From positions 1-36,548 of IMG/VR virus record IMGVR_UViG_3300050821_004022: a DNA stretch of 36,548 bases. The stretch is one strand, 5' to 3'. The DNA is from a virus. The notes beneath the pieces were generated by a model that saw nothing but the letters and a program-made list of their open reading frames with translations, was not told the origin of the DNA and ran no database searches. Shown here piece by piece: positions 6,239 to 36,548 of the stretch (position 1 is the first letter of the stretch; each line of letters opens with the position of its first letter). Position numbers and translations under genes: made by a program.

Positions 6239-6244
6239 ACTAAA

Positions 6245-8480: not shown

Positions 8481-8517
8481 GACTTTGTGAGGATGAGGAG
8501 CAGCGGGAGATGAACAT

Positions 8518-8739: not shown

Positions 8740-8748
8740 GGAAGGACA

Positions 8749-9618: not shown

Positions 9619-9624
9619 ATTTAC

Positions 9625-9696: not shown

Positions 9697-9741
9697 CCGA
9701 TGGGTTCATTGCTCGGCTACGCCAAGGGCGAAGGTCCGTTC

Positions 9742-10040: not shown

Positions 10041-10121
10041 TAATAGCACATTGGAAGATCGGCCGTGCTAGCTGCGTCCTACTCGGGCAAAAGTGCCCAC
10101 GACTCAATGCGTCACCAATAC

Positions 10122-10184
10122 GGGCGAGCCCCAGGCATTCGGTTATCCCATGATAATGAACCGATCGCCGCTTTGTGTTCGCCC
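10122..10184 (+). ncRNA. Y RNA-like element 3 (compact)
   Basis: A 63-nt element closed by GGGCGA / TCGCCC (10122-10127 / 10179-10184). It has GAGCCCC, then TCGGTT (10139-10144) pairing perfectly with AACCGA (10159-10164), and ends CTTTGTGTTCG. Block order and spacing match the element at 6016-6080. It lacks a tRNA-like module. It lies just downstream of tRNA-Thr(TGT) and in tandem with the next element. Confidence 0.68.
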
Positions 10185-10192
10185 TCTTCGAT

Positions 10193-10282
10193 AGAACGAG
10201 CCCCTTGTGTTCGGTTACCGAATGTAGCCTCGACAGAGGTGGGGTGTCGAAACCCCGATCCGACGCAGCTTGTGTTCGTTCT
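10193..10282 (+). ncRNA. Y RNA-like element 4
   Basis: A 90-nt element. Closing stem AGAACGA / TCGTTCT (10193-10199 / 10276-10282) differs from the other elements but keeps pairing. It has GAGCCCC, TCGG (10211-10214), CCGA (10255-10258) and CTTGTGTTCG. The apical module holds CCTC-GACA-GAGG (10228-10239) and GGGG-TGTCGAAA-CCCC (10241-10256), possibly a reduced version of the tRNA-like module with a T-arm-like second hairpin. TTCGG can alternatively pair with the adjacent CCGAA. Confidence 0.62.
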
Positions 10283-10330
10283 TATGCCCTTTTCGGGCCA
10301 GTGGCGCCCGCCTACGCAAACAGGCAAAGC

Positions 10331-10666
10331 ATGAAAGTGATAGCCCAGAAAGTCGAGCAATCTGGCCCACCACTCTTCCGCCTCTACATCCACAGCGCCC
10401 CTCACAGGAGGATGCATCGTGTGGTGATCCAGCAATACCGGGAGAAGCTACGTCCGGCGTTCATGAAGCTGGGCGAGCCATTGCCGATCGACTACCCGAT
10501 AGAGTTGTCGGTGGTGTTTGTGAATCCATCCAGCCCGGACCTCGGGAACTTGTACCTTGCCCTTGAGCAAGCGCTGGATGGCAAGACACTCAAGAAGCCC
10601 GGCATTCTGGCTGACGACAGTCTTATCCAGGTAGTGCGTCATCTATCGAAGATGTATGTCACTTGA
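10331..10666 (+). CDS. rusA: RusA-family Holliday junction resolvase
   Basis: A 111-aa endonuclease expected to cut four-way DNA junctions as a dimer. The family signature is near the C-terminus: PDLGNLYLALEQALDG (first acidic site plus Asn) followed by GILADDSLIQV (paired Asp). The length fits RusA (about 120). The frame extends upstream to 10175, but that would translate through the Y RNA element; the ATG at 10331 starts the conserved MKV...GPP...Y region. Phages use such enzymes to resolve recombination and replication branches. Confidence 0.85.
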   Translation: MKVIAQKVEQSGPPLFRLYIHSAPHRRMHRVVIQQYREKLRPAFMKLGEPLPIDYPIELSVVFVNPSSPDLGNLYLALEQALDGKTLKKPGILADDSLIQVVRHLSKMYVT

Positions 10667-10691
10667 CACTATTTGTCACGTAGCTTAGCAT
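10663..10691 (+). promoter_or_regulatory. possible sigma70-type promoter
   Basis: TTGACA (10663-10668), a 17-base spacer and TAGCAT (10686-10691, 4 of 6 matches to the -10 consensus), 33 bases before the next gene. The -35 overlaps the rusA stop codon. Weak but well placed to transcribe the 10725 gene and the Met, Tyr and Phe tRNAs. Confidence 0.35.
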
Positions 10692-10724
10692 TGTCCCAAT
10701 GCCAGTTTAACAGGGATGTGTCAG

Positions 10725-11087
10725 ATGAGCGGTAGGCAAGATCAGGGTGTTCGGCAAATTCATCCCAAGTCCCTTGCCCTAATAGGCGATGAGGCGTGTC
10801 TGGAAATGTTGGCTCTTGCACGAGACTTGCGCAGCGGCGCTGTGCCGCCGGAAGACTATAATCAGACTCGGTTAGGTTACCGGTGCGGAGCGTCATGCTG
10901 CATTGCAGGGCATTTGAGACGACGGCTGTCTTGGGAAACATACGCGAAGATAAGAGGTGGTTGGGTTGCATGCGACAACGGGATTGTGGATTTGTTTGCG
11001 TCATACCATCCGTCTGATCCACACTTAGCCGCCGATGCGATCGAGCGGTTTGTGTTCGATTGTTCTGATGAACCTTGGAAAGTTTGA
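10725..11087 (+). CDS. hypothetical phage protein with Cys motif
   Basis: A 120-aa protein. A central GYRCGASCCIAGHLRRRL text (about residues 48-65) and a C-terminal AADAIERF helix recur in uncharacterised phage proteins. An ATG three codons earlier (10716) is too close to the ribosome site, so 10725 is chosen. Its stop touches the tRNA-Met gene. The string TTTGTGTTCGAT near its end resembles the Y RNA 3' block but is coding. Confidence 0.65.
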   Translation: MSGRQDQGVRQIHPKSLALIGDEACLEMLALARDLRSGAVPPEDYNQTRLGYRCGASCCIAGHLRRRLSWETYAKIRGGWVACDNGIVDLFASYHPSDPHLAADAIERFVFDCSDEPWKV

Positions 11088-11162
11088 TGCGGGGTGGAGC
11101 AGCGGCAGCTCGTTCGGCTCATAACCGAAAGGTCGGCGGTTCGAGTCCGCCTCCCGCTTCCA
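11088..11162 (+). tRNA. tRNA-Met (CAT), initiator-like
   Basis: Acceptor TGCGGGG / TCCCGCT with an unpaired T1-T72, D stem GAGC / GCTC giving an A11-T24 pair, anticodon stem TTCGG / CCGAA, loop CTCATAA (anticodon CAT), T arm GGCGG-TTCGAGT-CCGCC, encoded CCA. The 1-72 mismatch and A11-T24 are hallmarks of bacterial initiator tRNA; the full three G-C pairs in the anticodon stem are not present. It could carry formyl-Met in phage translation. Confidence 0.88.
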
Positions 11163-11168
11163 AGTCTA

Positions 11169-11255
11169 GGGCGAGTATGCAAGCGGCCAAAGCAGCTTGA
11201 CTGTAAATCAAGTCCCTTCGGGGTTCGGAGGTTCGAATCCATCCCTCGCCCACCA
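11169..11255 (+). tRNA. tRNA-Tyr (GTA)
   Basis: Type II tRNA with acceptor GGGCGAG / CTCGCCC, D stem TGC / GCA with AAGCGGCCAAA loop, anticodon stem CTTGA / TCAAG, loop CTGTAAA (anticodon GTA), a long variable arm CCC-TTCG-GGG, T loop TTCGAAT and encoded CCA. The T stem GGAGG pairs with CCTCC only if A11241 bulges out, which is unusual. It is 6 bases after the tRNA-Met. Confidence 0.9.
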
Positions 11256-11272
11256 ATTCTGAGGAAGCCAAA

Positions 11273-11491
11273 ATGGCGAAGATTGCCAAGTTCACAAGAT
11301 GGGGCATTACGCTTGAGCCCGGCGAGTCACCGTTCATGGTAGATATCGTGGCATCGCATGTCTTTGCGATGACGTTCTACCCTAAGTCTTCCTACGGCCC
11401 GAGAACCGAGATCATGTCTCCCCAAGGCTCGTGCATCTCTGTCTGTGAGACGCCGGGGCAGGTCACGGCAGCGCTGGGGCTTGATAAATAA
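11273..11491 (+). CDS. small hypothetical protein
   Basis: A 72-aa protein (MAKIAKFTRWGITLEPGESP) with a good GAGGAAG ribosome site, lying between tRNA-Tyr and tRNA-Phe. It looks like a single small beta-rich domain ending in a helix. No family recognised. Its TAA is 3 bases before the tRNA-Phe gene. Confidence 0.6.
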   Translation: MAKIAKFTRWGITLEPGESPFMVDIVASHVFAMTFYPKSSYGPRTEIMSPQGSCISVCETPGQVTAALGLDK

Positions 11492-11494
11492 TAC

Positions 11495-11567
11495 GCCTCG
11501 TAAGCTAATCTGGTGAAAGCGCCGCGCTGAAGACGCGGAGAGCATCGATCGAAACGATGACGAGGCC
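11495..11567 (+). tRNA. tRNA-Phe (GAA)
   Basis: Acceptor GCCTCGT / ACGAGGC (7 of 7 pairs), D stem GCT / AGC with an 11-nt loop containing GG, anticodon stem CCGCG / CGCGG, loop CTGAAGA (anticodon GAA), 4-nt variable loop, T stem CATCG / CGATG (5 of 5). The T loop ATCGAAA begins with A rather than T, and CCA is not encoded. It ends 15 bases before the IS target duplication. Confidence 0.78.
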
Positions 11568-11590
11568 TTGCAAGCTGGCACCAATTAATA

Positions 11591-11614
11591 GGGATTTATA
11601 TACTTGACTCCATC
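11591..11614 (+). repeat. left terminal inverted repeat of the IS
   Basis: GGGATTTATATAC, then T-TGA-C-TCCATC. It matches the reverse complement of 13405-13428 at 22 of 24 positions. It is preceded directly by the target duplication AATTAATA (11583-11590). Confidence 0.93.
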
Positions 11615-11660
11615 CTCGTTTCGGGCTAGATTTTCGCCAGAAATTGAGGGAGATCGGGTC

Positions 11661-12587
11661 ATGTCCAAGTCCACCATTTCGACGTTCGAACTGTTCAAGA
11701 GGTTCCCGGACCAAGAAGCCGCGCGAGTCTACATTGAAGGTCGGTTGTGGCCGGCCGGCCCCAAGTGTCCTGTCTGCGGTCTCGGCGAGCGCATTTCGGT
11801 CAGGACAGGCAAGCCGGGCTTTTACCAGTGCGTCCAATGCAAGGAGGATTTCACTGTTCGCACTGGGACGATTTTCGAGCGTAGCCATGTCCCGTTGCAC
11901 AAATGGCTTTACGCCATGTACCTGCTTGTGACGGCCCGCAAGGGCATATCGTCCATGCAACTCGCCAAGGAAATCGGGATCACGCAAAAGTCGGCTTGGT
12001 TCGTTCTGCACCGCCTGCGAGAAGCGTGCGGCGGTGACTTGACTATGCTTCAAGGGCTGATCGAAATTGATGAAACCTATGTCGGCGGGATCGAGGCCAA
12101 CAAGCACGAACACAAGAAGCTGAAAGCTGGGCGCGGCGCGGTAGGCAAGACGGCCGTCCTGGGGATGCGCGAGCGCGGGGGGCGGACCAAGGCGTTCACG
12201 CTCGCCAACACGGACGCACAGACAATCCAAGACGTGATCGTGCAAAACGCCGCAGTCGGCTCGATGCTCCACACCGATGAGCATGGCGCTTACCGGGATA
12301 TCGGCGGACTGTTCTTCAAGCACGAAAGCATCAATCACAGCGCGGGCGAATTTGTTCGCGACGGCGTGACCACCAACTCGATTGAGAGCGTGTTCGCGGT
12401 TCTGAAACGCGGGCTTGTTGGCGTCTATCACCATGTCACGCCGAAGCACCTCGGCCGCTATGTCGATGAATTTGCCTTCCGCTTGAACGAAGGCAATGTG
12501 GCGCGGCATACGTTGGACCGCCTCGACAGTTTCGTTGACGGCGTTGCTGGCAAGCGGCTGACATACAAGGAACCGTCCGGTGGATAA
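11661..12587 (+). CDS. IS1595-family transposase
   Basis: A 308-aa transposase (ISXO2-like DDE domain) that cuts and joins the element ends. An N-terminal zinc ribbon (CPVCG, then CVQCKEDF) is followed by the catalytic core: IEIDETYVGG (first Asp), LHTDEHGAY (second Asp) and TNSIESVFAVLKRGL (last acidic residue in the family N-x-x-E context). The ATG at 11661 has a GGGAG site upstream; the frame is open further but runs into the inverted repeat. The gene appears intact. Confidence 0.95.
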   Translation: MSKSTISTFELFKRFPDQEAARVYIEGRLWPAGPKCPVCGLGERISVRTGKPGFYQCVQCKEDFTVRTGTIFERSHVPLHKWLYAMYLLVTARKGISSMQLAKEIGITQKSAWFVLHRLREACGGDLTMLQGLIEIDETYVGGIEANKHEHKKLKAGRGAVGKTAVLGMRERGGRTKAFTLANTDAQTIQDVIVQNAAVGSMLHTDEHGAYRDIGGLFFKHESINHSAGEFVRDGVTTNSIESVFAVLKRGLVGVYHHVTPKHLGRYVDEFAFRLNEGNVARHTLDRLDSFVDGVAGKRLTYKEPSGG

Positions 12588-13398
12588 TCCGTATTTTCTT
12601 GGCGCGCGCGCGTGTGTGTCTTTTTCGGGAGGACGCACAAGCGGATTCATGCTGCGGAAAATCGTCGATGCCCATGGCGGCACACTGCCGGATTACGTGC
12701 TGCCGCTCTTTGCGAATACTGGCAAAGAGCGCGAGGAAACGCTTCGATTCGTCCATGACTGCGGAACTAATTGGGGGGTGAAAATCCATTGGGTTGAATG
12801 GCGCGATACGGCGGAAGGCTTCGAGGAAGTCGGATACAACTCGGCCAGTAGGCGTGGCGAGCCGTTTGGCGCTCTGATCGCCAAGAAGAAAATGCCGCCC
12901 AATTGGCAGGCTCGTTTCTGTACGGAGTTCTTGAAGGTCCGCGCCATGGATGCGTTCATGACATCGCGCGGCTGGGCTCCATGCACCTATACCGTGGTCA
13001 TAGGGCTTCGTTACGATGAAGGTCTTCGCATCTTCAAGATGCTTGAACGGAACGAGCGGGACGGTCGCCAGTGCATTGCGCCGATGTCTAAAGCGAAGGT
13101 GACGGAACCCGACGTTCTCAGATTTTGGGGCGCGCAGCCTTTCGACCTCGCCTTGGAACCCGGAGAAGGCAATTGCGATCTTTGCTTTCTCAAGTCGCGA
13201 GGCTGTCGGAAAGAATTGATACGGCGACGGCCCGGTGCCGTGCAGTGGTGGAAAGATGCCGAGCAATCCGTCAACGGCTGGTTTGACCGCCGAGACAGCT
13301 ACGCGGATTTGGAGGCCGAGGTTCATCGATCACCCGACCTCTTTGGACCGCTTACGGTTGAGCATGACGCCGAATGTGGCTTGATATGCCAGTCTTGA
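12580..13398 (+). CDS. PAPS reductase-like passenger protein (PP-loop family)
   Basis: A 272-aa member of the adenine nucleotide alpha-hydrolase superfamily. The PP-loop SFSGGRTSGFM is at about residues 14-24, FANTGKEREE follows as in CysH-like enzymes, and Cys residues (RFCTEF, NCDLCFLKSRGC, C-terminal CGLICQ) could hold an iron-sulfur cluster. Proteins of this kind are frequent in phages and in DNA thiolation or defence contexts; the substrate cannot be read from sequence. It starts with GTG inside the transposase end (8-base overlap), so the two are co-translated. The stop is 30 bases from the IS right end. Confidence 0.85.
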   Translation: MDNPYFLGARACVSFSGGRTSGFMLRKIVDAHGGTLPDYVLPLFANTGKEREETLRFVHDCGTNWGVKIHWVEWRDTAEGFEEVGYNSASRRGEPFGALIAKKKMPPNWQARFCTEFLKVRAMDAFMTSRGWAPCTYTVVIGLRYDEGLRIFKMLERNERDGRQCIAPMSKAKVTEPDVLRFWGAQPFDLALEPGEGNCDLCFLKSRGCRKELIRRRPGAVQWWKDAEQSVNGWFDRRDSYADLEAEVHRSPDLFGPLTVEHDAECGLICQS

Positions 13399-13404
13399 CG
13401 AGCC

Positions 13405-13428
13405 GATGGACTCATGTATATAAATCCC
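13405..13428 (-). repeat. right terminal inverted repeat of the IS
   Basis: Reads GATGGACTCATGTATATAAA then TCCC on the + strand. Its reverse complement matches the left repeat at 22 of 24 bases and it is followed directly by AATTAATA (13429-13436). Confidence 0.93.
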
Positions 13429-13449
13429 AATTAATAAGGGAAGCAAACG

Positions 13450-13644
13450 ATGTGTCCAGAACTGGCTTATGGTCCGCTGTCATTGCTAGCGTTTATGCTT
13501 GGCATGGCGATTATTATCGGCGTTCTTGCAAACGCTGAGAGACAAGAGAGGCGTGATGCGCACGTATCCCCCTCGGCTACGAACCGAGACAAAGGTAACA
13601 GGAAGGAAGATGGGGGGGCAACTCCTCCCGTGCGCGCCAACTAG
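13450..13644 (+). CDS. small single-span membrane protein
   Basis: A 64-aa protein with one hydrophobic helix (about residues 9-26, PLSLLAFMLGMAIIIGVLA) and a charged tail. A strong AAGGGAAG ribosome site precedes the ATG just outside the IS. The last about 28 codons overlap a tRNA-like element (13558-13639) and read as low-complexity sequence, so the natural protein may originally have ended elsewhere. Confidence 0.5.
   Translation: MCPELAYGPLSLLAFMLGMAIIIGVLANAERQERRDAHVSPSATNRDKGNRKEDGGATPPVRAN
13558..13639 (+). other. tRNA-like relic, anticodon loop CTACGAA
   Basis: GCGCACG (13558-13564) pairs with CGTGCGC (13629-13635), followed by G and CCA. An anticodon-like arm CTCGG-CTACGAA-CCGAG (anticodon ACG, Arg) is present, as is GGGGG / CCTCC as a possible T stem. 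There is no room for a D arm (7 bases between acceptor and anticodon stem) and there are 23 extra bases after the anticodon arm. Read as a decayed or rearranged tRNA-Arg; chance pairing is possible. Confidence 0.33.
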
Positions 13645-13669
13645 TCGGAGTTCGAAGGGAGATCGCCAT

Positions 13670-13744
13670 ATGAAAACGGTATATGATGGCTCTCATAAGG
13701 CCATGAGCCGGGATCGTCACCCGGACGCGCCACCATGCCATTGA
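13670..13744 (+). CDS. 24-aa ORF overlapping a tRNA-like 3' half
   Basis: A short frame, MKTVYDGSHKAMSRDRHPDA and onward, with a good GAAGGGA ribosome site and an overlap with the next gene's start. The same bases also form a tRNA 3' half: TGGCT-CTCATAA-GGCCA (13687-13703, anticodon CAT), CCGGG-ATCGTCA-CCCGG, ACGCGCC, A, CCA ending 13735. No matching 5' acceptor strand is found, so either a decayed tRNA-Met/Ile or a small coding gene is present. Confidence 0.3.
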   Translation: MKTVYDGSHKAMSRDRHPDAPPCH

Positions 13745-13974
13745 CCTGGCGCGTGAATGGTGCCATCTATTGCGATATGGCAATTCGCCCTAAGCCTTGG
13801 CGCGTAAGGGTCATGCGCAAGATTGAGGCTTTCGTTGATGTTGAGGCCACCGATGTGGCCGATGCCGAGACGAAGGCTTCTCATGTCCCGGGGGTGGTGC
13901 ACGTCTTCCCCAAGTCTGCACATCCCGTTGAGGTGAAGCTGTTCCCAGAGCATCAGGCAGTTGTGGAGGATTAG
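13735..13974 (+). CDS. small hypothetical protein
   Basis: A 79-aa protein; the conserved part is probably MRKIEAFVDVEATDVADAET onward (in-frame ATG codons at 13776 and 13815 are alternative starts, the latter with AAGGG upstream). The pattern F-V-x-V-E-A-x-D-x-A-D-A-E followed by a short strand is common in small phage proteins of unknown function. Its TAG abuts the next ATG. Confidence 0.5.
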   Translation: MPLTWRVNGAIYCDMAIRPKPWRVRVMRKIEAFVDVEATDVADAETKASHVPGVVHVFPKSAHPVEVKLFPEHQAVVED

Positions 13975-14268
13975 ATGAAGCTGTTTGAGGCTTTCGATGG
14001 GTACATTTTTAGCTTTGGGTTCGACATGGTCCAGCGTAAGCCTGATCCGCATCGGATTTGCTGGTGCGATCCGAACGATAGGTCTTGGAGTCCAAGGCCG
14101 ACAAATCTTGCTGGATCTATTTTTTGCGAGATGTTGACATTCCAACCGGAATTTGTCCGTCAGGTTAGTGGTTGCGTCGTTGCATATCAGCCAGGGTTGT
14201 GCTTTGAGTTGTATAACGTTGGTCCGCCGGACGTTTGGCGGTTGCACCCGTTGCGAGCGGAGGATTGA
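13975..14268 (+). CDS. hypothetical protein
   Basis: A 97-aa protein, rich in aromatic residues (MKLFEAFDGYIFSFGFDMVQ), starting immediately after the previous stop. No domain is recognised. Its codon use is somewhat richer in T at third positions than the structural genes. Its TGA is directly followed by the KTSC gene. Confidence 0.6.
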   Translation: MKLFEAFDGYIFSFGFDMVQRKPDPHRICWCDPNDRSWSPRPTNLAGSIFCEMLTFQPEFVRQVSGCVVAYQPGLCFELYNVGPPDVWRLHPLRAED

Positions 14269-14478
14269 ATGGAACGTAAGGATGTGGTGTCAAGCAACAT
14301 CAAAAGCATAGGCTATGACGCCGAGTCTCAGACGGTCGAGGTGGAGTTCAAGAACGGCGGCATCTACCAGCACCACGACGTTCCACAGGAAGCCTACGAC
14401 GGCCTGATGGCGGCGAAGTCGAAGGGTGGACACTACGCCGGCACGATCCGCGGCAAGTTCAAGCATACGAAGGTTTGA
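14269..14478 (+). CDS. KTSC-domain protein
   Basis: A 69-aa protein matching the KTSC domain pattern: V-SSNIKSIGYDAESQTVEVEF at residues about 6-26, then KNGGIYQHHDVP, an alanine-serine turn (AAKSKGGHYAG) and a basic end. KTSC domains are found alone or fused to RNA-associated proteins such as lysyl-tRNA synthetase in bacteria; their molecular role is unclear. Start directly follows the preceding stop. Confidence 0.85.
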   Translation: MERKDVVSSNIKSIGYDAESQTVEVEFKNGGIYQHHDVPQEAYDGLMAAKSKGGHYAGTIRGKFKHTKV

Positions 14479-14482
14479 GGCG

Positions 14483-14650
14483 ATGGCCACGACAACGGTA
14501 CGCGACATAGAGGCTCGCAAGGCTTTCGAGAAGTCGATCAGGGAAATGGCCGAGCAAACAATTGCGCAATTCGGGTCTGGCGAGGTCAGCGTGATCGAGC
14601 GTTGTCTCGGCAGCGATCAGCGTGCGGACTACGGCACCGCCGGAAGGTGA
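14483..14650 (+). CDS. small helical protein
   Basis: A 55-aa protein (MATTTVRDIEARKAFEKSIR and onward). The first 35 residues form an amphipathic helix. The frame is open upstream, but the ATG at 14483 follows the KTSC stop by 4 bases and gives the compact protein. Last gene before the portal promoter region. Function unknown. Confidence 0.5.
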   Translation: MATTTVRDIEARKAFEKSIREMAEQTIAQFGSGEVSVIERCLGSDQRADYGTAGR

Positions 14651-14677
14651 GTGCGGCAACCGCGCAGGGATGATTTG

Positions 14678-14689
14678 CTAAAGTAGTCA
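14678..14689 (+). promoter_or_regulatory. shared intergenic 12-mer, copy 1
   Basis: CTAAAGTAGTCA in the about 100-base gap before the portal gene, preceded by TTG and followed by GATAAT. The identical 12-mer is in the gap before the capsid genes (23311-23322), and TTGCTAAAG recurs at 32422. Position before structural operons suggests a phage-specific promoter or activator site. Confidence 0.5.
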
Positions 14690-14730
14690 GATAATAGCTA
14701 AAGGTAATGATCTTCTAACGGCTTAAGCTG

Positions 14731-14750
14731 TCGGGTATGGTCCTACCCGA
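14731..14750 (+). promoter_or_regulatory. hairpin ending on the portal start codon
   Basis: TCGGGTA-TGGTCC-TACCCGA, a perfect 7-bp stem whose last base is the A of the portal ATG (14750). No Shine-Dalgarno sequence is visible for the portal, so initiation may depend on this structure or on opening it. Confidence 0.4.
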
Positions 14751-17245
14751 TGGCCAATGTGTTCCCGCTTGACCTCCGCGGCAATTACCGGAAGCCCGCG
14801 CCAGCGTCCCCGTTCTCTGCGGGCGGGTCGAATGATGTTGTTGTTGCGCTTGGTGGCGATGAAGACAATGGGTTCGACGCTGACACCGGTACGACGCAAG
14901 TCCCATTGGCGGACGGCTCGCTAGAGGTCAGTCTTGGTCCGCCGCCGCTCAAGTCAGGAAAGGCCGGCGACGCCGATAAGTTCAACGCCAATCTCGCCGA
15001 GCACCTAACCGACGGTACGCTATCGCAGATAGCCGAAAAGCTCCTCCTCGGCATCGAGCAGGACGACCAGAGTCGATCCAAGTGGCTCGACAATCTCTCC
15101 AATGGCATTTCCCTTCTTGGCCTTGAGGTGAAGCAGCCTCGTGGCGCCGCTGCGTCCGGTGGCAATCCGCAAGAGGGAACGTCTACCGTCGATCACCCTC
15201 TGTTGCTTGAGGCCGTGCTTCGCTTCCAGGCCAACGCCCGCGGCGAGTTGTTGCCGAGCGACGGGCCGGTCAAAGTGCGTAATGACGGCGAGGGCAATTC
15301 GCTTGCGGCACAGTTGGCGACAGCGCTCGAAAAAGACCTCAACCACTACCTGACAAAGACGGCCAAGGAGTACGTTCCTGACACCGATCGCATGCTGTTG
15401 ATGCTCGGTTTCTGCGGTATTTCCTTCAAGAAGGGCTACCACGATCCCGTCAAGCGCAGGCCGGTCATCGCCAGCATTGATGCCAAGGATTTGATCGTCA
15501 GTAACGCTGCGACAGACGTTGATGGTTGTGGGCGCGTTACGCATCGCATCATGATGCGGCCGAGCCTGATCAAGCGCATGCAGTTGGTTGGCGCGTATCG
15601 CGACATCTATCTGTCACCGATATCATCGGTGCCAGTGATGGCCAATGCGGTCGATAACAAGATCAATCAGGTTCAGGGCATCGCGCCGGCCAATTACATC
15701 GAACCTGATGACCAAGAGCGCGAGTTCTACGAGTGCTACTGCGAGATCGAGATTCCTGGCTTCGAGCACGAGCTTGATGGCGAGCCAACAGGATTGCCGC
15801 TTCCGTACAAGGTCGTGATCGACAAAGAGTCACGTCAGATTCTCGAAATCCGCCGCAACTGGGATGAGGATGACGAGTTCTGTATGCCGCTCAATCGCAT
15901 TGTGGCGTACATCTTCATCCCCGGATTTGGCTTCTACGGGATCGGCCTTCTCAACATTCTCGGCAATGCAACGAAGGCGGTCACGGCCTCATGGCGATTG
16001 ATGATCGACGCCGGCATGTTCGCCAACTTCCCCGGATTCTTGTATCTCAAGGCGTTTGCGAAGCAGTTGACCAATCAATTCCGCGTTGCGCCCGGTTCTG
16101 GCGTTGCCGTCGATACGACCGGAAACGACATCCGCACCGCGGTTATGCCTCTGCCGTACAAAGACCCCTCCGCCGTTTTCATCCAACTTATTGAGAATAT
16201 TGCGCAAACGGCGCAGCGCGTCGGTGGCACAGCGGAGCTTCAGATCGGTGAGGGCAAGCAGGACGCACCGGTTGGCACTACGCTTGCGATGATCGAGCAG
16301 GCAACCAAGCTCATGTCGGCGGTGCACAAGCGCTTGCATCATAGCCAGGGCGTCGAGTTCGGGATGCTGAAAGAGCTTCTGATGGAAGATCCTGCCGCGC
16401 TCTGGCGTCATAACAAGAAGAGCAAGGTGCTGAAAGCGCTGATGCGGCAGACCGGACAGCAACAGATTGCCGAACAACAGGAACAGGCCGAGGAACGGCA
16501 CCGTTCTATGTTCATTGCGGCACTGAATGACTGTGAATTAGTGCCGCGCGCCGATCCGAACACGTCGAGCCAGACCGAGCGCTACCTGAAGGTCGTGGCT
16601 ATGCGTCAGATGGCGCAGACCAACCCGCAGATCGACATGAACAAGGTCGATCAGTTTGCGTTCCAGGTGATGGGAATTGACGACGGCGACCAGTTCTTCC
16701 GGCCGCCGCCCGCGCCTGGATCGCAGCCGCCGAGCCCAGAGGAAATGACGGCCCAGGCAACGATGCTCGCGGCCCAGGCGCGCATTCAGGAAGCTCAGAC
16801 GAAGGCCGCCGATGCGACGGCTCAAGCGCAGGCAAGTCAGGCCGAACTCGCCTCGAAAGAGCGCATCGCGCAGCTTGGTGTGTCGCGCGAACTCGTCATT
16901 CACCAGTCAGACCAGGATCGCGCTAGCCGTGATATGGCGTTCAACAACCAGCAAAAGTCGGTTGATCGGTTGCACAAGTTGGCGCTTGCCACGCAGCAAA
17001 GTCGCGCTACGGCGGCAGAGGGTGTTGCGGATCGGCGGTTCCAATTGGTAAACGAGGGCTTGCGTCGTCAGCATGAGATGGCACAAGATGGTGTGGCCAA
17101 GCAGCACGAGCACGTCCAGGGCGGCTTAGATCGTCAGCACGAGGCGCTACAGAGCGATGCGCAGCGCCAGCATGATGCCGCGCAGGCCGACATGCAGCGT
17201 CAGCACGATCGTGCGATGCAGCCGAAAGAGGGAGTTGCGCCGTGA
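14750..17245 (+). CDS. portal protein
   Basis: An 831-aa dodecamer-forming portal through which DNA enters the capsid and to which the tail attaches. The N-terminal LLLGIEQDDQSRSKWLDNLS region and the central RVTHRIMM, GFGFYGIGLLNILGN and QRVGGTAELQIGEGKQDAPV text match long P22/podovirus-type portals. Residues about 660-760 are Ala/Gln-rich helix. The tail carries five 11-residue repeats of the form (R/K)QH(E/D)xxQ (from about residue 773). It begins a new transcription unit after the shared 12-mer. Confidence 0.9.
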   Translation: MANVFPLDLRGNYRKPAPASPFSAGGSNDVVVALGGDEDNGFDADTGTTQVPLADGSLEVSLGPPPLKSGKAGDADKFNANLAEHLTDGTLSQIAEKLLLGIEQDDQSRSKWLDNLSNGISLLGLEVKQPRGAAASGGNPQEGTSTVDHPLLLEAVLRFQANARGELLPSDGPVKVRNDGEGNSLAAQLATALEKDLNHYLTKTAKEYVPDTDRMLLMLGFCGISFKKGYHDPVKRRPVIASIDAKDLIVSNAATDVDGCGRVTHRIMMRPSLIKRMQLVGAYRDIYLSPISSVPVMANAVDNKINQVQGIAPANYIEPDDQEREFYECYCEIEIPGFEHELDGEPTGLPLPYKVVIDKESRQILEIRRNWDEDDEFCMPLNRIVAYIFIPGFGFYGIGLLNILGNATKAVTASWRLMIDAGMFANFPGFLYLKAFAKQLTNQFRVAPGSGVAVDTTGNDIRTAVMPLPYKDPSAVFIQLIENIAQTAQRVGGTAELQIGEGKQDAPVGTTLAMIEQATKLMSAVHKRLHHSQGVEFGMLKELLMEDPAALWRHNKKSKVLKALMRQTGQQQIAEQQEQAEERHRSMFIAALNDCELVPRADPNTSSQTERYLKVVAMRQMAQTNPQIDMNKVDQFAFQVMGIDDGDQFFRPPPAPGSQPPSPEEMTAQATMLAAQARIQEAQTKAADATAQAQASQAELASKERIAQLGVSRELVIHQSDQDRASRDMAFNNQQKSVDRLHKLALATQQSRATAAEGVADRRFQLVNEGLRRQHEMAQDGVAKQHEHVQGGLDRQHEALQSDAQRQHDAAQADMQRQHDRAMQPKEGVAP

Positions 17246-17478
17246 GCTATGAGATTTACGGCCTTCCATCGCAGCCTCACAAGTGGCGTTTGGGGTGGGT
17301 GACATTTTTCAGGTTGCTCAGATCCCAGAGACGAAAGAAGCATGGGGCTGGCAAGGCACCTTGGCTTCAGGCCATCTATGTTGCCGCGTGCGGTCAATAT
17401 CTCGTTGATCATCAGCATCGTTGTCCTGGTCGTATACCATGGCATGGCCGGTTGGCCCAATTCATAGGTGGACGATGA
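17242..17478 (+). CDS. small hypothetical protein
   Basis: A 78-aa basic, Trp/His-rich protein (MSYEIYGLPSQPHKWRLGWV). The GTG start overlaps the portal TGA. A Cys/His cluster (CGQYLVDHQHRC) could bind metal. Function unknown. Confidence 0.5.
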   Translation: MSYEIYGLPSQPHKWRLGWVTFFRLLRSQRRKKHGAGKAPWLQAIYVAACGQYLVDHQHRCPGRIPWHGRLAQFIGGR

Positions 17479-17738
17479 TCGAGCCTGCGAAAGAGGTTGA
17501 TGAAGTGACCTTTCAACTGAATTGGCTGAGAGAGCATGAGGACGCGAATCCTCTGGCGATTGTTGCCAATCAACGGAATCGAGCAGAGGAACATGAGTCT
17601 CGTGCGCGCTCTGGTTTGGACCAAAGTGTGGAGCACAAACGGCAAGCAGACCTTTACGGAGTGCTGGCTGACGCGACACAGCGCTACCATGATGAAGCGC
17701 CGTCTGTAGTGCGTGAAAAGTGGAGGCCGTTTCCATGA
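17475..17738 (+). CDS. small helical protein
   Basis: An 87-aa, charged helical protein. The ATG at 17475 overlaps the previous TGA; the frame is open 18 codons further upstream, but that stretch lies inside the preceding gene. The text ANQRNRAEEHESRARSGLDQ looks like a small helical bundle, possibly a Gln/Glu-rich virion assembly accessory. Confidence 0.55.
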   Translation: MIEPAKEVDEVTFQLNWLREHEDANPLAIVANQRNRAEEHESRARSGLDQSVEHKRQADLYGVLADATQRYHDEAPSVVREKWRPFP

Positions 17739-19269: not shown

Positions 19270-19475
19270 TCGACTCGTTCCACATCGCACTGCATCGGAT
19301 GATCAGCGAGGAGATCGCCAGTCGCATGACGAACTTGGCGGCTGGCGCCGCCGCTGATTACTCGGCTTACCAGAAGCGAGTCGGTGAGATAACGGGATTC
19401 AATGCGGTCCTGGCCATGTGTCAACAAATCGAGGAAACGCGTTACGGTAGTCCGAAAGAGGGAGATGAACTCTAA
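19266..19475 (+). CDS. small helical protein
   Basis: A 69-aa helical protein (FHIALHRMISEEIASRM and onward) with a C-terminal AMCQQIEETRYG helix. It overlaps the HAD gene by 4 bases and the Cpn10-like gene by 1 base. Small proteins of this pattern occur before scaffold genes in podoviruses, but no function is established. Confidence 0.6.
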   Translation: MIDSFHIALHRMISEEIASRMTNLAAGAAADYSAYQKRVGEITGFNAVLAMCQQIEETRYGSPKEGDEL

Positions 19476-19885
19476 TGCCGTTTATGCTGATGGAACACGA
19501 GAACGATCCTCGTCAGGTGATTTACAAGAAGATCGGGATGAAGAAGCTGGGAGAACTTCCTGGTTTCAAGCTCTTGCGCAACGACGTATTGCTCGGCGTG
19601 TACGAGAGGCCGGAGAAGACGAAGAGCGGCATCCATCTACCGGATTCGACGCGTAATGAAGATTCCATGCAAGGCAAAGCAGCGCTGGTCTTGGCTCTTG
19701 GACCAACCGCCTTTGTGTCTGACGAGCATGTCACCTTTCACCCAGAACAGAAGGTCGGAGTTGGCGACTGGGTGTCGATTTGGGTTAGCGATGGTCGCAA
19801 GATCGTAATAAATGGGCAACTGTGCCGGATCATTAGAGACCAAGACGTGGTGCTTTCTATACCATCGCCTGATTCGGTGTGGTAA
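19475..19885 (+). CDS. GroES-like co-chaperonin (Cpn10)
   Basis: A 136-aa protein resembling the GroES fold. The mobile-loop-like region VLLGVYERPEKTKSGIHLP with SGI is followed by GKAALVLALGP, a V-GDWVSIWVSDGRKI barrel segment, and a C-terminal IRDQDVV strand like the IxxxDIL of Cpn10. It is longer than GroES (97 aa), as in phage versions such as T4 gp31, which replaces GroES when host GroEL folds the capsid protein. Position just before scaffold and capsid genes fits this. Confidence 0.82.
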   Translation: MPFMLMEHENDPRQVIYKKIGMKKLGELPGFKLLRNDVLLGVYERPEKTKSGIHLPDSTRNEDSMQGKAALVLALGPTAFVSDEHVTFHPEQKVGVGDWVSIWVSDGRKIVINGQLCRIIRDQDVVLSIPSPDSVW

Positions 19886-32038: not shown

Positions 32039-32419
32039 ATGGCGAATATAGCGCAGTTCATGCAGACTGGGATGCTCAACTGGGCTCTTCTTACGGGAAG
32101 CCCAAGGCGACCTCTATCAGTGACTTGCGGTCTGACCACTGACGTTCCGACAAACACGACTGGGACAGAGGTTGTTGATTCTGGCTACAGTCGGCAGGTA
32201 CCGGCATTCAGCGCTGCGACGATTGTCGGCGGTCTTGGCACATCAGTGAGTACCGGGTCGATGACATTTGGCCCGTTCAATTCTGGTCATACGATTCGCG
32301 GCATTGTTCTGTTTGACGATCAGAGCAACGTATTATTTTTCGCCACGTTAACGAAAACAGTCAATCCCGGGGATTCGATAGCTATGTCTCCAGGGGCATT
32401 GACGGCAACGCTGGTGTGA
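32039..32419 (+). CDS. virion protein, decoration-like
   Basis: A 126-aa beta-rich protein (MANIAQFMQTGMLNWALLTG) followed by strands with Thr/Gly turns (GYSRQVPAFSAATI, GSMTFGPFNS). Short proteins beginning AQFMQxxMLNWAL are frequent in phage structural operons and often lie near tail or capsid decoration genes. The exact role is unknown. Confidence 0.6.
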   Translation: MANIAQFMQTGMLNWALLTGSPRRPLSVTCGLTTDVPTNTTGTEVVDSGYSRQVPAFSAATIVGGLGTSVSTGSMTFGPFNSGHTIRGIVLFDDQSNVLFFATLTKTVNPGDSIAMSPGALTATLV

Positions 32420-32502: not shown

Positions 32503-32988
32503 ATGGCGAACTATTCGGCACCGTTGCTCTATAACGCGGTCACGACGACCTTCAAGTCTGCCGGGGTGCTTTGGGCTGGCGCGACGGCTCGCCGCCTTAT
32601 GTTCTACGAGGCAGAGTTTGGTCAGGCCGGCGCCCTTTCCAGCACAGACTGCCAAGACCAGTGGGATTTGAGCCGCATAGGCAACACCGTCACGTTGACG
32701 GGCTCGACCATCGTTACAAATCTTCTTGACCCGGCGGATGGGGTGTCGAACGCGCTATTCATGAACGCGGTTACCCTTGAGCCTTGCTATACGACGGCTG
32801 GCAACGGTTTGAACCTCAAGTCGTGGTCTATCAACCAGCGCGGCAGTTATCGCTGGCGCGCGCTCGACGATGGCGACAACATTATCGTGCCGGCGACGGC
32901 CGGTTTTGGTCTTGGTATGCGGACGCTCTCCATCACGGGCGGTTTCGCGGCCTCGGCCGTAGGTAATATTAATTTCGTTGAACGCTGA
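32503..32988 (+). CDS. structural protein
   Basis: A 161-aa beta-rich protein (MANYSAPLLYNAVTTTFKSA) with Thr/Gly/Asn-rich strands and few charges, ending NINFVER. It has a CGGAG ribosome site and follows a short intergenic gap with the partial shared motif. Probably a virion component; no family recognised. Confidence 0.6.
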   Translation: MANYSAPLLYNAVTTTFKSAGVLWAGATARRLMFYEAEFGQAGALSSTDCQDQWDLSRIGNTVTLTGSTIVTNLLDPADGVSNALFMNAVTLEPCYTTAGNGLNLKSWSINQRGSYRWRALDDGDNIIVPATAGFGLGMRTLSITGGFAASAVGNINFVER

Positions 32989-32991: not shown

Positions 32992-33318
32992 GTGCCCAAG
33001 CTACGCAACTTCGAGCCGGGAGGCGTCGGTCAGTCATATTGGGGGCCGATCGGCGATCCCGGCCGCATCCTTATTCGAGAGACGCACGAGTCCACTTGCT
33101 CTCACTGCGGGCACATCACGACGATCCATAATCGCCGCAATATGATGGATTATGTCGAGTGCTGCCGCGGGTGCATGAGGCTGATCTGTCTCGGCTGCTG
33201 GGACCTCATGTGCAAGGGCAAAATGGGCTGCGTCCCGCAGGAGAAGGAATGCGAGCGCATCGAGAGCGAAATACGTCTGCGCGGCAGACTCGCACGCAGT
33301 GCGTGGGGGTGTTACTAG
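32992..33318 (+). CDS. zinc-binding phage protein
   Basis: A 108-aa protein with CSHCG, CCRGCMRLICLGCWDLMC and a later Cys (residues about 36-85), enough for two zinc sites. An N-terminal GGVGQSYWGPIGDPGRI segment may contact the virion. GTG start 3 bases after the previous stop. The family occurs among phage structural genes; function unknown. Confidence 0.65.
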   Translation: MPKLRNFEPGGVGQSYWGPIGDPGRILIRETHESTCSHCGHITTIHNRRNMMDYVECCRGCMRLICLGCWDLMCKGKMGCVPQEKECERIESEIRLRGRLARSAWGCY

Positions 33319-33319
33319 C

Positions 33320-33964
33320 GTGAGATGCGATGCTTGCAAGAGCTGGACCACGTCCCAGGTCACGAGCTATGCCGATGGCTCGGAGATAACGAACTGGGCG
33401 TGCGATCCCGGCAAGGGCAAGTGTGACGCACTTAATCTGGAGACGCCGATCGACTTCGGGTGTGTCAAGTTCGTTGCTGGTGGCGACCACGTTATCCATA
33501 AGTGGAAGAATGGTTCCCCTTGGCAACACTGGGAAGCTATAGACTGCCCTGACTGCCGTGGTATCGGCAGCACGGCGGTGCTTGATACTGCCTCTGGCTT
33601 CCCTCGTGTGACGGGCGGCACTTGTTCGCGATGCGTCGGGATGGGCAAGGTCCAGAAGCACGACGATGGCTATATCAGTGACAATCATACGAAGATTCAT
33701 CCCAAGGAACGGGAGTTGAAGAAGGCCGGTCCTCTCAAGTGCCAGCACTGCGACCGAGAGGTGGATATCCAGTGGATCATTTGTCCGTACTGTGCGCGGC
33801 GACCTAACGAGAGGATGGATGAGCCGGAGGTGGTGGACGCCGTCCTAGGGAATGGCGGTGGGGAATTTAAGAGGCCGAGTTCAGTGGCCGCGAAGAGAGA
33901 AATGCTGCATCAGGGTATTGTTCGGATGAATGAGGATGATGCGCGACTGTGGGACGGAGCGTAA
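33320..33964 (+). CDS. multi-CxxC zinc-ribbon protein
   Basis: A 214-aa protein with CDAC at the N-terminus, CPDCRGIG and CSRCVGMG in the middle (DnaJ-type CxxCxGxG pair) and CQHC...CPYC near residue 155-172 (rubredoxin-like ribbon). At least three zinc sites are likely. The GTG at 33320 follows the previous stop by one base. Possibly an assembly chaperone-like protein; the middle pair resembles that of the protein at 4596. Confidence 0.65.
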   Translation: MRCDACKSWTTSQVTSYADGSEITNWACDPGKGKCDALNLETPIDFGCVKFVAGGDHVIHKWKNGSPWQHWEAIDCPDCRGIGSTAVLDTASGFPRVTGGTCSRCVGMGKVQKHDDGYISDNHTKIHPKERELKKAGPLKCQHCDREVDIQWIICPYCARRPNERMDEPEVVDAVLGNGGGEFKRPSSVAAKREMLHQGIVRMNEDDARLWDGA

Positions 33965-33967: not shown

Positions 33968-36322
33968 ATGGGAGATTTCTGGGGTTGGTTCAACGGGTTT
34001 GCGGCTCCGAAGCTTGGGGTGCGTGAGAAGACTTTCCGCAAGATGTTCGAGTACCTCGATGCGATCGATCGGCCGGCGTGCGTATGGGAGACCGGATGCG
34101 TTCGAGACCCCAATGATTGGGGGCCGGCTGGGTGCTCCACTTACCTGTTTGATCGCTACGTCGTGGATAATGGCGGCGAAGTAACATCGGTCGATCTTAA
34201 TCCGTCAACCGTTGAGCGATGTAGGAGAGAGGTCAGTTCTCAAACAACCATCCATTGCGACGACAGCGTGGAGTTCTTGACGAGGGCGGCAAAGGCTTCG
34301 TGGGTGTCGCCCGTCGATCTGCTGTACCTCGATTCATTTGACATGGAATGGCACGATCCAGTTCCTTCTGCGCACCATCACCTCAAGGAGTTCATGGCGA
34401 TCCTGCCCGTGCTGAGGTCGGATACGCTGGTGGCGGTGGACGACTCCCCTACGGTCTCTGAGGACTTCCAGCCGCGGGTGAAGATCGGAGGGAAAGGCGA
34501 GTTCGTCGCTAGGTACTGCCACTCTGTTGGCGCTGACGTGCAGTTCACTGGCTACCAAGTCGGATTCTCCAACGTCACGCGTCGGCCTGAGCAGACGGGT
34601 GAGTCCGTCGAGGACTTGATCCGGCGGGCGCGATGGAATGTCGAGCACGGTAACGTCGCGGCCGCTTCGCACCTCTATGACCTTGTCCTCATGACAACGC
34701 CGCCGCCGTGGGGTGGGTTGGCCAGGATCGCTCGCGGGGAAGCTTGCGCCTTCTTCGCGCGCATTGCGACTAAACAGAATCTCCGCGGCACGGCCGGAGA
34801 TTGGTATCGCACCGCCATAGAGTGCGATCCTATGGCAGTGGACTATCGACTGGAGTTTGCCAGTCGTGTGTTGCTGAATATGGGATCATACACCGGAGCG
34901 ATAAACGAAACGCGGCGAGCGGCTAGCATAGAGCCCGGCAACTATCGGGCGTGGGCAATGCTGGGCGGCATATTGCACGAGGACAATCAGGCGGCCCAGG
35001 CAGTGATCGCCTATGACAAGGCGATCGAGGTCGTGGACGAGTCCGACCCCGAGGCCGTTGCTGCCGTGAAGATGAACAGGTCCACGATAGCCCTTGATAT
35101 GGCAGACTATGGTTTGGTGGAGAAACTGTGCAACGACGTGATAGCTGGCGGGACCGATCGGGTCGGTGACGCCAAGCACGTCATGGCCCTCGCAGAATTC
35201 AGGCAATCTCTCCACGAGCAGGCGGCTGACACGTTTTTGGAAGCTCTGGAGTTGGGCGCGCGTGATCCTGGTATCGTGCGCTGGCACCGTTCCCACGCGT
35301 TGGAATCAGTTGGGCGCTACCGTGAGGCGTCGGTTGAGCGCGAGCAGCGGGCCAACCAGAACCGCCTCGGTAGCCTTTCCATGCCGATGAAGAGGTTCAG
35401 CAGGCCGGTGCTGCCGGCTCTTTGGGGCGATGACGCACCTCCAGTCATGACAGATGGTCGTCAAACATCCATCCATGTGCATACGGAAGCTGGGTCGGGC
35501 GATAACTTCGTTCTGGCGCGCTACGTCCCGATCTTGGCCGAGATGGGCTACGACGTGCGCTACGAGGTCATGAACGACATGTTCGACCTCATGCGGCACA
35601 GCTTCGAGGGTACCGGGGTGACCGTAGTGCGCGTCGCCCCCGACTATCCAGGATCATTGCGGATCGAGCCGTTCGACTACCATTGCCCGATCGGCAGCCT
35701 TATGCACGCTATGGGGACCGAGGTAGACAAGATTCCGTGGCGCGGGCCGTATTTGAAGGCCGACCCGAAATTGGTCGAGCAGTATCAAAAGCAACTCAGG
35801 TTGCCTTTGAGGAAGGTTGGTGTCTGCTGGTCGTCCGGCATTATCCGTGACAGGGATGTGTGGCTTGAGTCCTATGGCCGGCGCAAGTCGATGCATTTCG
35901 ATGTCATGCGCCCGATCTATGAGACAGAGCGCTCTGGTGTGCAGTTTGTTTCATTACAAGTTGGGCCAGAGCGTAAGCAGAACCCTTGCACATACGTTGA
36001 AGACATTCTCCCCGAGCGCCCCACTTGGGCAGACACGGCCGCCCTCATCGAGTGTCTCGACCTCGTTATTACTGTGGATACGGGCGTGGCTCACCTGGCC
36101 GGTGCCATGGGCAAGCCCACGTGGGTGATGACGCAACGCAATTCTTCGTCATGGCATTTCATGTGCTGGAGGCCAGGGGCTATTTGGAACGAACGGAGTC
36201 CGTGGTATCCCAACACTCGTGTATTTCGACAGCACAAGTTCGATGAGTACCGCTGGGGCGAAGTAGTGAGAGATGTAGCCGAAGAATTGAATTGTGTTGA
36301 ATCTGTCAAGGCGGTGGCGTGA
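33968..36322 (+). CDS. methyltransferase-TPR-glycosyltransferase fusion
   Basis: A 784-aa three-part enzyme. Residues about 1-215: class I SAM methyltransferase-like domain with ETGCVRDPND (motif I region, 41-50), VTSVDLNPS (Asp76) and DLLYLDSFD (Asp122). Residues about 220-470: tetratricopeptide repeats (WYRTAIECDPMAVDYRLEFA, AYDKAIEVVDESDPEAVAAV). Residues about 510-780: GT-B glycosyltransferase with WADTAALIECLDLVITVDTG, VAHLAGAMGKPTWVM and PWYPNTRVFRQ, as in family 9 (heptosyltransferase-like). Likely modifies a glycan or virion protein; the substrate is unknown. Confidence 0.85.
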   Translation: MGDFWGWFNGFAAPKLGVREKTFRKMFEYLDAIDRPACVWETGCVRDPNDWGPAGCSTYLFDRYVVDNGGEVTSVDLNPSTVERCRREVSSQTTIHCDDSVEFLTRAAKASWVSPVDLLYLDSFDMEWHDPVPSAHHHLKEFMAILPVLRSDTLVAVDDSPTVSEDFQPRVKIGGKGEFVARYCHSVGADVQFTGYQVGFSNVTRRPEQTGESVEDLIRRARWNVEHGNVAAASHLYDLVLMTTPPPWGGLARIARGEACAFFARIATKQNLRGTAGDWYRTAIECDPMAVDYRLEFASRVLLNMGSYTGAINETRRAASIEPGNYRAWAMLGGILHEDNQAAQAVIAYDKAIEVVDESDPEAVAAVKMNRSTIALDMADYGLVEKLCNDVIAGGTDRVGDAKHVMALAEFRQSLHEQAADTFLEALELGARDPGIVRWHRSHALESVGRYREASVEREQRANQNRLGSLSMPMKRFSRPVLPALWGDDAPPVMTDGRQTSIHVHTEAGSGDNFVLARYVPILAEMGYDVRYEVMNDMFDLMRHSFEGTGVTVVRVAPDYPGSLRIEPFDYHCPIGSLMHAMGTEVDKIPWRGPYLKADPKLVEQYQKQLRLPLRKVGVCWSSGIIRDRDVWLESYGRRKSMHFDVMRPIYETERSGVQFVSLQVGPERKQNPCTYVEDILPERPTWADTAALIECLDLVITVDTGVAHLAGAMGKPTWVMTQRNSSSWHFMCWRPGAIWNERSPWYPNTRVFRQHKFDEYRWGEVVRDVAEELNCVESVKAVA

Positions 36323-36334: not shown

Positions 36335-36548
36335 ATGATGAGCGAGGAATTTGTCGGGCCTTTCGCGAGTTGGGCGGACCTCAAGCGCGACTATCTCGCC
36401 AAGGGCGATGGCATATCCGACGATACGGCCGCCTTGCAGGCGGCGGTGAGCGATCTCACGGCGACTGGTAGACCGCGCAACCTGTTCATTCCATCCGGCA
36501 CTTATACCGTCACGCAGACCGTCACGCTGCTCGGTGGTCTCGGGGCGG
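36335..36548 (+). CDS. tail spike, N-terminal part (cut by window end)
   Basis: Partial gene, MMSEEFVGPFASWADLKRDY and onward. GDGISDDTAALQAAVSDL followed by LFIPSGTYTVTQTVTL is the classic start of the pectate-lyase-type right-handed beta-helix found in phage tail spikes that cut host surface polysaccharides. ATG codons at 36335 and 36338 are both possible. No stop before the window ends. Confidence 0.8.
   Translation, partial: MMSEEFVGPFASWADLKRDYLAKGDGISDDTAALQAAVSDLTATGRPRNLFIPSGTYTVTQTVTLLGGLGA

What the first reader, a model, noticed from the sequence alone, without database searches (positions are those of the whole stretch)
33968..36322. Methyltransferase-TPR-glycosyltransferase fusion before the tail spike
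A single 784-aa chain combines an SAM-methyltransferase-like fold, tetratricopeptide repeats and a family 9-like glycosyltransferase. Its position just before the tail spike suggests modification of virion proteins or of host surface sugars. Such a three-part fusion is uncommon in phages.
Basis: partly seen in the sequence, partly recalled or inferred. Interest (0 to 1): 0.6.

Follow-up and report, generated by a model that had tools for sequence, protein, structure and literature searches.

The report
Phage methyltransferase–TPR–glycosyltransferase fusion enzyme
A phage carries, just before its tail spike gene, one protein that joins a methyl-adding enzyme, a protein-gripping repeat arm and a sugar-adding enzyme; related phages keep the same pairing in several different forms, which suggests that they decorate a protein, probably of their own particle, with a methylated sugar.

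Summary
A 784-aa ORF at 33968-36322 (+) folds confidently (pLDDT 88) into a COMT-like methyltransferase (residues 1-205), a TPR superhelix (214-475) and a GT9-type GT-B glycosyltransferase (498-784). Residues matching known active sites are invariant in all phage relatives examined. A pectate-lyase-like tail-spike ORF starts 13 bases downstream.

The claim that such a fusion is uncommon does not hold. Seventeen other IMG/VR contigs carry the same order, and the window sits in an all-viral clade of 24 TPR-glycosyltransferases. Every one of the 24 has a methyltransferase, in exchangeable form: 18 with this domain fused, 4 with a separate FkbM gene directly upstream, 2 with a different fused methyltransferase-like domain (at least four changes on the tree). 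More distant phages carry the same methyltransferase as a separate downstream gene. No match to the full fusion was found in the annotated phage collection.

Best reading: a cytoplasmic protein O-glycosyltransferase of the FlmG/OGT/SPINDLY working type. The TPR arm selects the target, the GT9-type domain adds a sugar, and the methyltransferase O-methylates that sugar. The likely target is a virion protein (spike, fibre or neighbour). Target, sugar and activity are untested. I call it a new variant of a known kind.

The parts
33968..36322 (+). Whole gene: methyltransferase-TPR-glycosyltransferase fusion, 784 aa
   Evidence: Single ORF; full-length relatives in 17 other viral contigs; AlphaFold2 pLDDT 88.3
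33968..34582 (+). N-terminal COMT-like, probably metal-dependent O-methyltransferase domain (residues 1-205); E41-T-G SAM motif, D122, D158-D159
   Evidence: Methyltransf_24 above Pfam cut-off; fold match to COMT Z 16.4 over 170 residues; residues invariant in 20 of 20
34607..35392 (+). TPR superhelix, about eight helical pairs (residues 214-475), proposed substrate-recognition arm
   Evidence: TPR families; helices in the model; OGT TPR domain 6eou Z 15.2 over 248 residues; least conserved domain, mean 41% identity
35459..36319 (+). C-terminal GT-B glycosyltransferase domain, GT9/heptosyltransferase type (residues 498-784); G511-D512, K640, D704-T-x-x-A-H709
   Evidence: Glyco_transf_9 above cut-off; 3tov Z 18.1, WaaF 17.4, TibC 16.3, WaaC 16.1; residues invariant in 22 of 22
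33299..33964 (+). Conserved upstream neighbour c1, cysteine-rich zinc-ribbon/DnaJ-CxxCxGxG-like protein
   Evidence: Weak PF00684 match; cluster c1 present in 19 of 24 loci, at or close to the gene before the fusion
32992..33318 (+). Conserved upstream neighbour c4, small CxxC protein
   Evidence: Cluster c4 in 15 loci; the window copy is recognised by eye from its sequence, because the simple ORF caller chose an antisense ORF here
32503..32988 (+). Conserved upstream neighbour c3, 161 aa, probably a virion protein
   Evidence: Cluster c3 in 15 loci; follows a PHROG head-protein match at 32039-32419
36335..36548 (+). Start of a pectate-lyase-like tail-spike ORF, cut by the end of the record
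   Evidence: PF12708, 3.8e-11 on 71 aa

Best explanation
The gene encodes a cytoplasmic two-step protein glycan-modifying enzyme, probably made with the late virion genes. The TPR superhelix binds a specific protein, most likely a virion protein made nearby (tail spike or fibre, or conserved neighbour c3). The GT9-type GT-B domain transfers a sugar from a host nucleotide-sugar to Ser/Thr of that protein. The N-terminal metal- and SAM-dependent methyltransferase O-methylates that sugar, either on the protein or before transfer. Shown: the domain anatomy, conservation of residues at known active-site positions, purifying selection, invariable pairing of this glycosyltransferase clade with an exchangeable methyltransferase, and position in the virion gene block. 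Inferred: enzymatic activity, the sugar as methyl acceptor, a protein as glycosyl acceptor, and the virion as target.
For: Structure: GT9/heptosyltransferase and COMT folds at Z 16-18; whole-chain Foldseek top hits are TPR + GT-B protein glycosyltransferases SPINDLY and OGT. Residues: MTase E41, G43, D122, D158, D159 invariant in 20 of 20; GT E507, G511, D512, K640, D704, H709 invariant in 22 of 22. D122/D158/D159 sit at the spacing of COMT Mg ligands D141/D169/N170 (PMC5001633), and the sugar O-methyltransferase MycE uses two aspartates in a similar way (PMC9275233). Coupling: all 24 members of the phage clade (support 0.999) have a fused or adjacent MTase in three forms, with at least 4 changes on the tree. 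More distant phages carry the same MTase as a separate gene downstream (L034 overlapping, L032/L033 at 748 bp) or an FkbM MTase adjacent or fused (L037, L060, L065, L077). An annotated podovirus has major capsid protein, then (two small ORFs later) a TPR-GT, then after one further gene an FkbM MTase. Selection: dN/dS 0.10/0.05/0.17 for MTase/TPR/GT in L018-L022. Position: downstream genes match tail and virion families, Laminin_G_3, beta-helix and BNR. Precedents: FlmG, where the TPR half binds flagellins and the GT-B half glycosylates them (PMC7591256); phage-encoded glycosyltransferases glycosylate capsid and tail tube proteins of mycobacteriophages (PMC12363180).
Against: No activity, glycan or target has been observed. 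GT9 members usually act on lipopolysaccharide. Fold similarity does not show function. The residue equivalences to COMT and GT9 were read from sequence motifs and overall fold matches, not from superposed coordinates. Methyl acceptor and order of the two steps are unknown. Fusion and adjacency fit coupled action but do not prove a common substrate.
Confidence: 0.5

Rival explanations
1. The fusion modifies a host surface glycan (lipopolysaccharide or capsule) during infection, for example to block superinfection or adsorption of progeny to debris; the TPR arm docks on a host protein.
For: GT9 relatives WaaC and WaaF build LPS core; a surface-binding spike gene lies next door.
Against: A long TPR arm on a GT-B domain is the layout of protein glycosyltransferases (PMC7591256). 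The gene sits inside the virion block with conserved neighbours c3-c4-c1 rather than among lysogeny or early genes.
Confidence: 0.22
2. The enzyme modifies a host protein such as flagellin or another regulator or adhesin, as FlmG does, to alter host behaviour during infection.
For: The working analogue FlmG glycosylates flagellins (PMC7591256); the closest non-phage relatives are bacterial TPR-glycosyltransferases at about 30% identity.
Against: The late virion-gene position is an odd place for a host-takeover enzyme.
Confidence: 0.15
3. The methyltransferase domain methylates the protein target (or is only a structural module) and does not touch the sugar; the coupling is co-targeting of one protein by two independent modifications.
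For: Methyltransf_24 is a broad family with many acceptors; weak sequence matches of the profile in PDB are O-methyltransferase family 3 and a tRNA methyltransferase.
Against: Replacement by FkbM, a family known mainly for O-methylation of sugars and polyketides (established knowledge), and the conserved metal-ligand positions favour a hydroxyl acceptor.
Confidence: 0.25
4. A bacterial surface-polysaccharide gene recently picked up by the phage with no phage role.
For: TPR-GT proteins are common in bacteria.
Against: The window's GT lies in an all-viral clade of 24 (support 0.999), itself in a wider all-viral group of 33; it is syntenic in many phages, and relatives are under purifying selection.
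Confidence: 0.03

Closest known systems
FlmG of Caulobacter crescentus (flagellin O-glycosyltransferase, PMC7591256)
   Same: N-terminal TPR half and C-terminal GT-B half in one cytoplasmic chain; suggests how target choice works
   Different: No methyltransferase; target is flagellin; 596 aa. Direct sequence relatedness was not tested, as the FlmG sequence was not retrieved
O-GlcNAc transferase / SPINDLY (GT41)
   Same: TPR superhelix followed by GT-B; top whole-chain Foldseek matches
   Different: Catalytic half is GT9-type by Pfam and fold; no GT41 match in the window protein; no methyltransferase
GT9 heptosyltransferases WaaC/WaaF and protein heptosyltransferase TibC
   Same: GT-B fold Z 16-18, Glyco_transf_9 match over cut-off, conserved GD, K and DTxxAH-GKP residues
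   Different: No TPR arm or methyltransferase; TibC is a dodecamer containing iron
Metal-dependent O-methyltransferases: COMT, MycE
   Same: COMT fold Z 16.4 and matching aspartates (PMC5001633, PMC9275233)
   Different: Sequence similarity is very weak (best PDB profile match E 0.0097); acceptor unknown; the COMT Lys144 position is D, H, N or S
Phage virion glycosyltransferases of mycobacteriophages Che8, Corndog and Myrna (PMC12363180)
   Same: Phage-encoded enzymes that glycosylate the phage's own capsid and tail proteins
   Different: The passages read do not describe a TPR arm or a fused methyltransferase for them; no relationship was tested
TPR-GT plus FkbM methyltransferase in podovirus MW202512.1
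   Same: TPR-GT and FkbM methyltransferase genes close to the major capsid gene
   Different: Separate genes, with an endonuclease gene between; only about 25% identity to the window protein

Membership tests
GT9 (Glyco_transf_9) glycosyltransferases | Pfam PF01075 match over the curated cut-off | tested here: met
   26.4 bits against 22, but over a short stretch, 690-718; also met in P0002, P0003, P0004
GT9 (Glyco_transf_9) glycosyltransferases | GT-B fold of the heptosyltransferase type | tested here: met
   3tov Z 18.1, 259 residues, 3.3 A; 1psw Z 17.4, 253 residues, 3.3 A
GT9 (Glyco_transf_9) glycosyltransferases | Use of an ADP-heptose-like donor and sugar transfer activity | not testable with these tools
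   Needs biochemistry
GT41 (OGT/SPINDLY) | TPR superhelix N-terminal to a GT-B domain | tested here: met
   Model and Foldseek top hits
GT41 (OGT/SPINDLY) | Glyco_transf_41 catalytic domain (PF13844) | tested here: not met
   No PF13844 match at E up to 1 in P0001, while the Pfam copy detects it elsewhere
FlmG-type modular flagellin glycosyltransferase | TPR half plus GT-B half in one chain | tested here: met
   PMC7591256
FlmG-type modular flagellin glycosyltransferase | TPR half binds flagellin, and flagellin glycosylation depends on it | not testable with these tools
   Needs binding and mass spectrometry experiments
FlmG-type modular flagellin glycosyltransferase | Direct sequence homology to FlmG | not tested
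   FlmG sequence not available as a named record here; Caulobacter vibrioides does carry a PF01075 match
Class I SAM methyltransferase, Methyltransf_24 / COMT-like metal-dependent O-methyltransferases | Rossmann MTase fold with SAM motif | tested here: met
   PF13578 30.2 bits against 26.3; COMT Z 16.4; E41-T-G invariant
Class I SAM methyltransferase, Methyltransf_24 / COMT-like metal-dependent O-methyltransferases | Asp ... Asp-Asp/Asn metal ligands | tested here: met
   D122, D158, D159 in 20 of 20 sequences; the equivalence to COMT D141, D169, N170 rests on motif position, not superposed coordinates
Class I SAM methyltransferase, Methyltransf_24 / COMT-like metal-dependent O-methyltransferases | Methylates a sugar hydroxyl | not testable with these tools
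   Needs biochemistry

The most novel reading that the evidence does not exclude
A phage-encoded, TPR-programmed protein glycosylation system that puts O-methylated sugars on its own tail spike or fibre, in which the methyl-capping enzyme is never absent but freely exchangeable (three methyltransferase types, fused or separate) and the TPR arm diverges fastest to follow the variable adhesin next to it.
Probability: 0.35. Interest if true: 0.72.

Novelty: new variant of a known kind. Interest (0 to 1): 0.52.

Why it matters
If true, phages carry a compact self-contained module that chooses a virion protein, glycosylates it and caps the sugar with methyl, a parallel to the bacterial FlmG and eukaryotic OGT logic. 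Virion glycosylation has been shown to change antibody recognition of phages, and has so far been tied to other phage enzymes. The rule that this glycosyltransferase clade always has a methyltransferase partner, in changing form, makes a clear prediction testable by mass spectrometry of one purified virion.

Tried and rejected
1) Rarity of the fusion: rejected; 17 further viral contigs carry it. 2) Degenerate enzymes: rejected by invariant residues and low dN/dS. 3) Recent bacterial import: rejected by the GT tree. 4) Same-order fusion in bacterial polysaccharide loci: not found among 77 bacterial loci; bacterial TPR-GTs are often tandem arrays (L116 has 11 GT domains in 5876 aa). The 0 of 70 count uses profiles trained on phage sequences, and other methyltransferase families do occur among bacterial neighbours (5-6 of 105 proteins), so the contrast is one of degree. 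5) Sequence search of solved structures with the methyltransferase profile gave only very weak matches. 6) NCBIfam gave no named family over its cut-off. 7) dN/dS for L018-L020 is hard to read: the GT part is close while MTase and TPR are far apart, which looks like module exchange with saturated dS. 8) No paper describing such phage TPR-GT9 proteins was found in the held library; that library is incomplete. 9) No host could be assigned; the transposase matches are too distant. 10) FlmG itself could not be compared directly.

Full report
WHAT IS THERE. The window is a 36.5-kb linear virus record, probably a fragment. At 33968-36322 (+) lies one ATG ORF of 784 codons. Its start follows the upstream stop by three bases, and 13 bases after its stop an ORF at 36335 begins whose first 71 residues match pectate-lyase-like PF12708, the usual start of a depolymerase-type tail spike. 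Upstream are terminase, portal, head proteins and further small virion-like genes, so the gene sits at the junction of the head/neck block and the tail-spike block.

DOMAINS. Pfam scores Methyltransf_24 and Glyco_transf_9 above their curated cut-offs, with TPR families in between. AlphaFold2 with 24 phage sequences gives mean pLDDT 88.3 and shows an alpha/beta domain (1-205), a long helical superhelix (214-475) and a two-lobed alpha/beta domain (about 498-784). Aligned to solved structures, residues 488-784 match GT9 enzymes (3tov Z 18.1, WaaF 17.4, the protein heptosyltransferase TibC 16.3, WaaC 16.1), residues 5-206 match catechol O-methyltransferase (Z 16.4), and residues 210-476 match the OGT TPR domain (Z 15.2). 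As a whole chain the best Foldseek matches are SPINDLY and OGT, which also put TPRs before a GT-B domain.

ARE THE ENZYMES INTACT? In 20 phage methyltransferase sequences E41-T42-G43, D122, D158 and D159 never vary; in 22 glycosyltransferase sequences E507, G509, G511, D512, K640, D704, H709, K716 and P717 never vary. In COMT the Mg2+ is held by D141, D169 and N170 (PMC5001633); the sugar O-methyltransferase MycE uses two aspartates, and its relative ThnM1 shares a histidine three residues after the first (PMC9275233). The window's L-D122-S-F-D and V-D158-D159-S-P stand at the corresponding places, and five relatives have histidine at position 125. These equivalences were read from motifs and overall fold matches, not superposed atoms. 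Purifying selection acts on each domain in the close pair L018-L022 (dN/dS 0.10, 0.05 and 0.17).

THE FAMILY. Scans of IMG/VR gave 23 distinct contigs closely related in the TPR-GT part, 17 of them with the same three-part fusion. In a tree of 148 viral and bacterial GT domains the window lies in an all-viral clade of 24 with support 0.999. Every member has a methyltransferase: 18 (window included) have this domain fused; four (L011, L024, L025, L027) lack it and have a separate FkbM methyltransferase gene immediately upstream, overlapping the TPR-GT gene in three of them; two (L028, L030) have a different fused N-terminal domain. That third domain has the E-T-G-T-G motif and a moderate-confidence model (pLDDT 65.3) that aligns to COMT and TrmR at Z about 12, so it is very probably a third kind of methyltransferase. 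At least four changes of arrangement are needed on the GT tree, though several inner nodes are weakly supported. L018 carries both the fused domain and an FkbM gene. Outside the clade, L034 and L032/L033 have a TPR-GT without the domain and a separate gene of the window's own methyltransferase family downstream; others have FkbM adjacent or fused at either end (L037, L060, L065, L077). Stand-alone copies of the domain occur in cyanophages and in L006/L007. In all, 33 of 79 viral TPR-GT loci (27 of 57 clusters at 70% identity) had one of these two methyltransferase families within 3 kb, against 0 of 70 bacterial loci. The profiles were made from phage sequences, and bacterial neighbours do include other methyltransferases (5-6 of 105), so the contrast is indicative only. 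In the annotated phage collection no record covers 80% of the protein, but podovirus MW202512.1 has major capsid gene, two small ORFs, TPR-GT, endonuclease, FkbM methyltransferase.

NEIGHBOURHOOD. The order c3 - c4 - c1 - fusion is conserved: c1 (cysteine-rich, window 33299-33964) in 19 of 24 loci, c3 and c4 in 15 each. Downstream genes differ between phages but match tail and virion families, lectin-like Laminin_G_3, beta-helix, BNR and glycine-rich families, and a giant glycine-rich protein often follows (cluster c2). Among the 18 fused proteins the TPR part is the least conserved (mean identity 41%, against 48% for the methyltransferase and 55% for the glycosyltransferase), as expected if it follows a changing partner, though repeats also drift freely.

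MECHANISM. FlmG of Caulobacter shows the logic: its TPR half binds flagellins, its GT-B half alone neither binds them nor suffices (PMC7591256). By analogy the phage TPR arm selects a protein and the GT9-type domain glycosylates it. Constant company of a methyltransferase that can be replaced by other types says that the methyl group matters while the particular enzyme does not; the simplest shared acceptor is the transferred sugar. [quoted passage not shown] Shown: anatomy, conservation, pairing, synteny. Inferred: activity, donor, acceptor, order of steps, target.

CONFIDENCE. About 0.9 that both enzyme domains are active enzymes, about 0.75 that the protein works as a TPR-guided protein glycosyltransferase coupled to methylation, and about 0.5 for the full statement with a virion target. 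These are my own estimates.

NOVELTY. The parts are known; this combination, conserved as a recurrent phage module with an exchangeable methyltransferase, was not found in the papers searched. I rate it a new variant of a known kind.

Noticed in passing
6125-7918 (+): TROVE plus Ro60 vWA protein (PF05731, PF25045), a Ro60-like RNA-binding protein in a phage.
   Followed up: no
11604-12587 (+): IS1595-type transposase beside a tRNA cluster (Met 11088, Tyr 11169, Phe 11495); its closest plasmid matches are only about 37-46% identical.
   Followed up: partly
12580-13398 (+): ORF overlapping the transposase end that looks like a PAPS-reductase/DndC-type protein by eye; no Pfam match.
   Followed up: no
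19475-19885 (+): Cpn10-like co-chaperonin (PF00166) among the head genes.
   Followed up: no
8749-9183 (+): HAD/PNKP-type phosphatase domain protein (PF25109).
   Followed up: no
32992-33318 and 33299-33964 (+): Two conserved cysteine-rich proteins upstream of the fusion in many phages, function unknown; possibly assembly or handling factors for the modified protein.
   Followed up: partly
L116 (Telmatospirillum siberiense), 3-17630: A 5876-aa bacterial reading frame, open across the fetched stretch, with 11 tandem GT domains of this family and TPRs; several other bacteria have similar giant arrays (L094, L096, L136, L158).
   Followed up: partly
L018, L020, L022: The GT part of L020 is close to L018 while the MTase and TPR parts are far apart, whereas L018 and L022 differ mostly in the GT part: signs of module exchange inside the gene.
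   Followed up: partly
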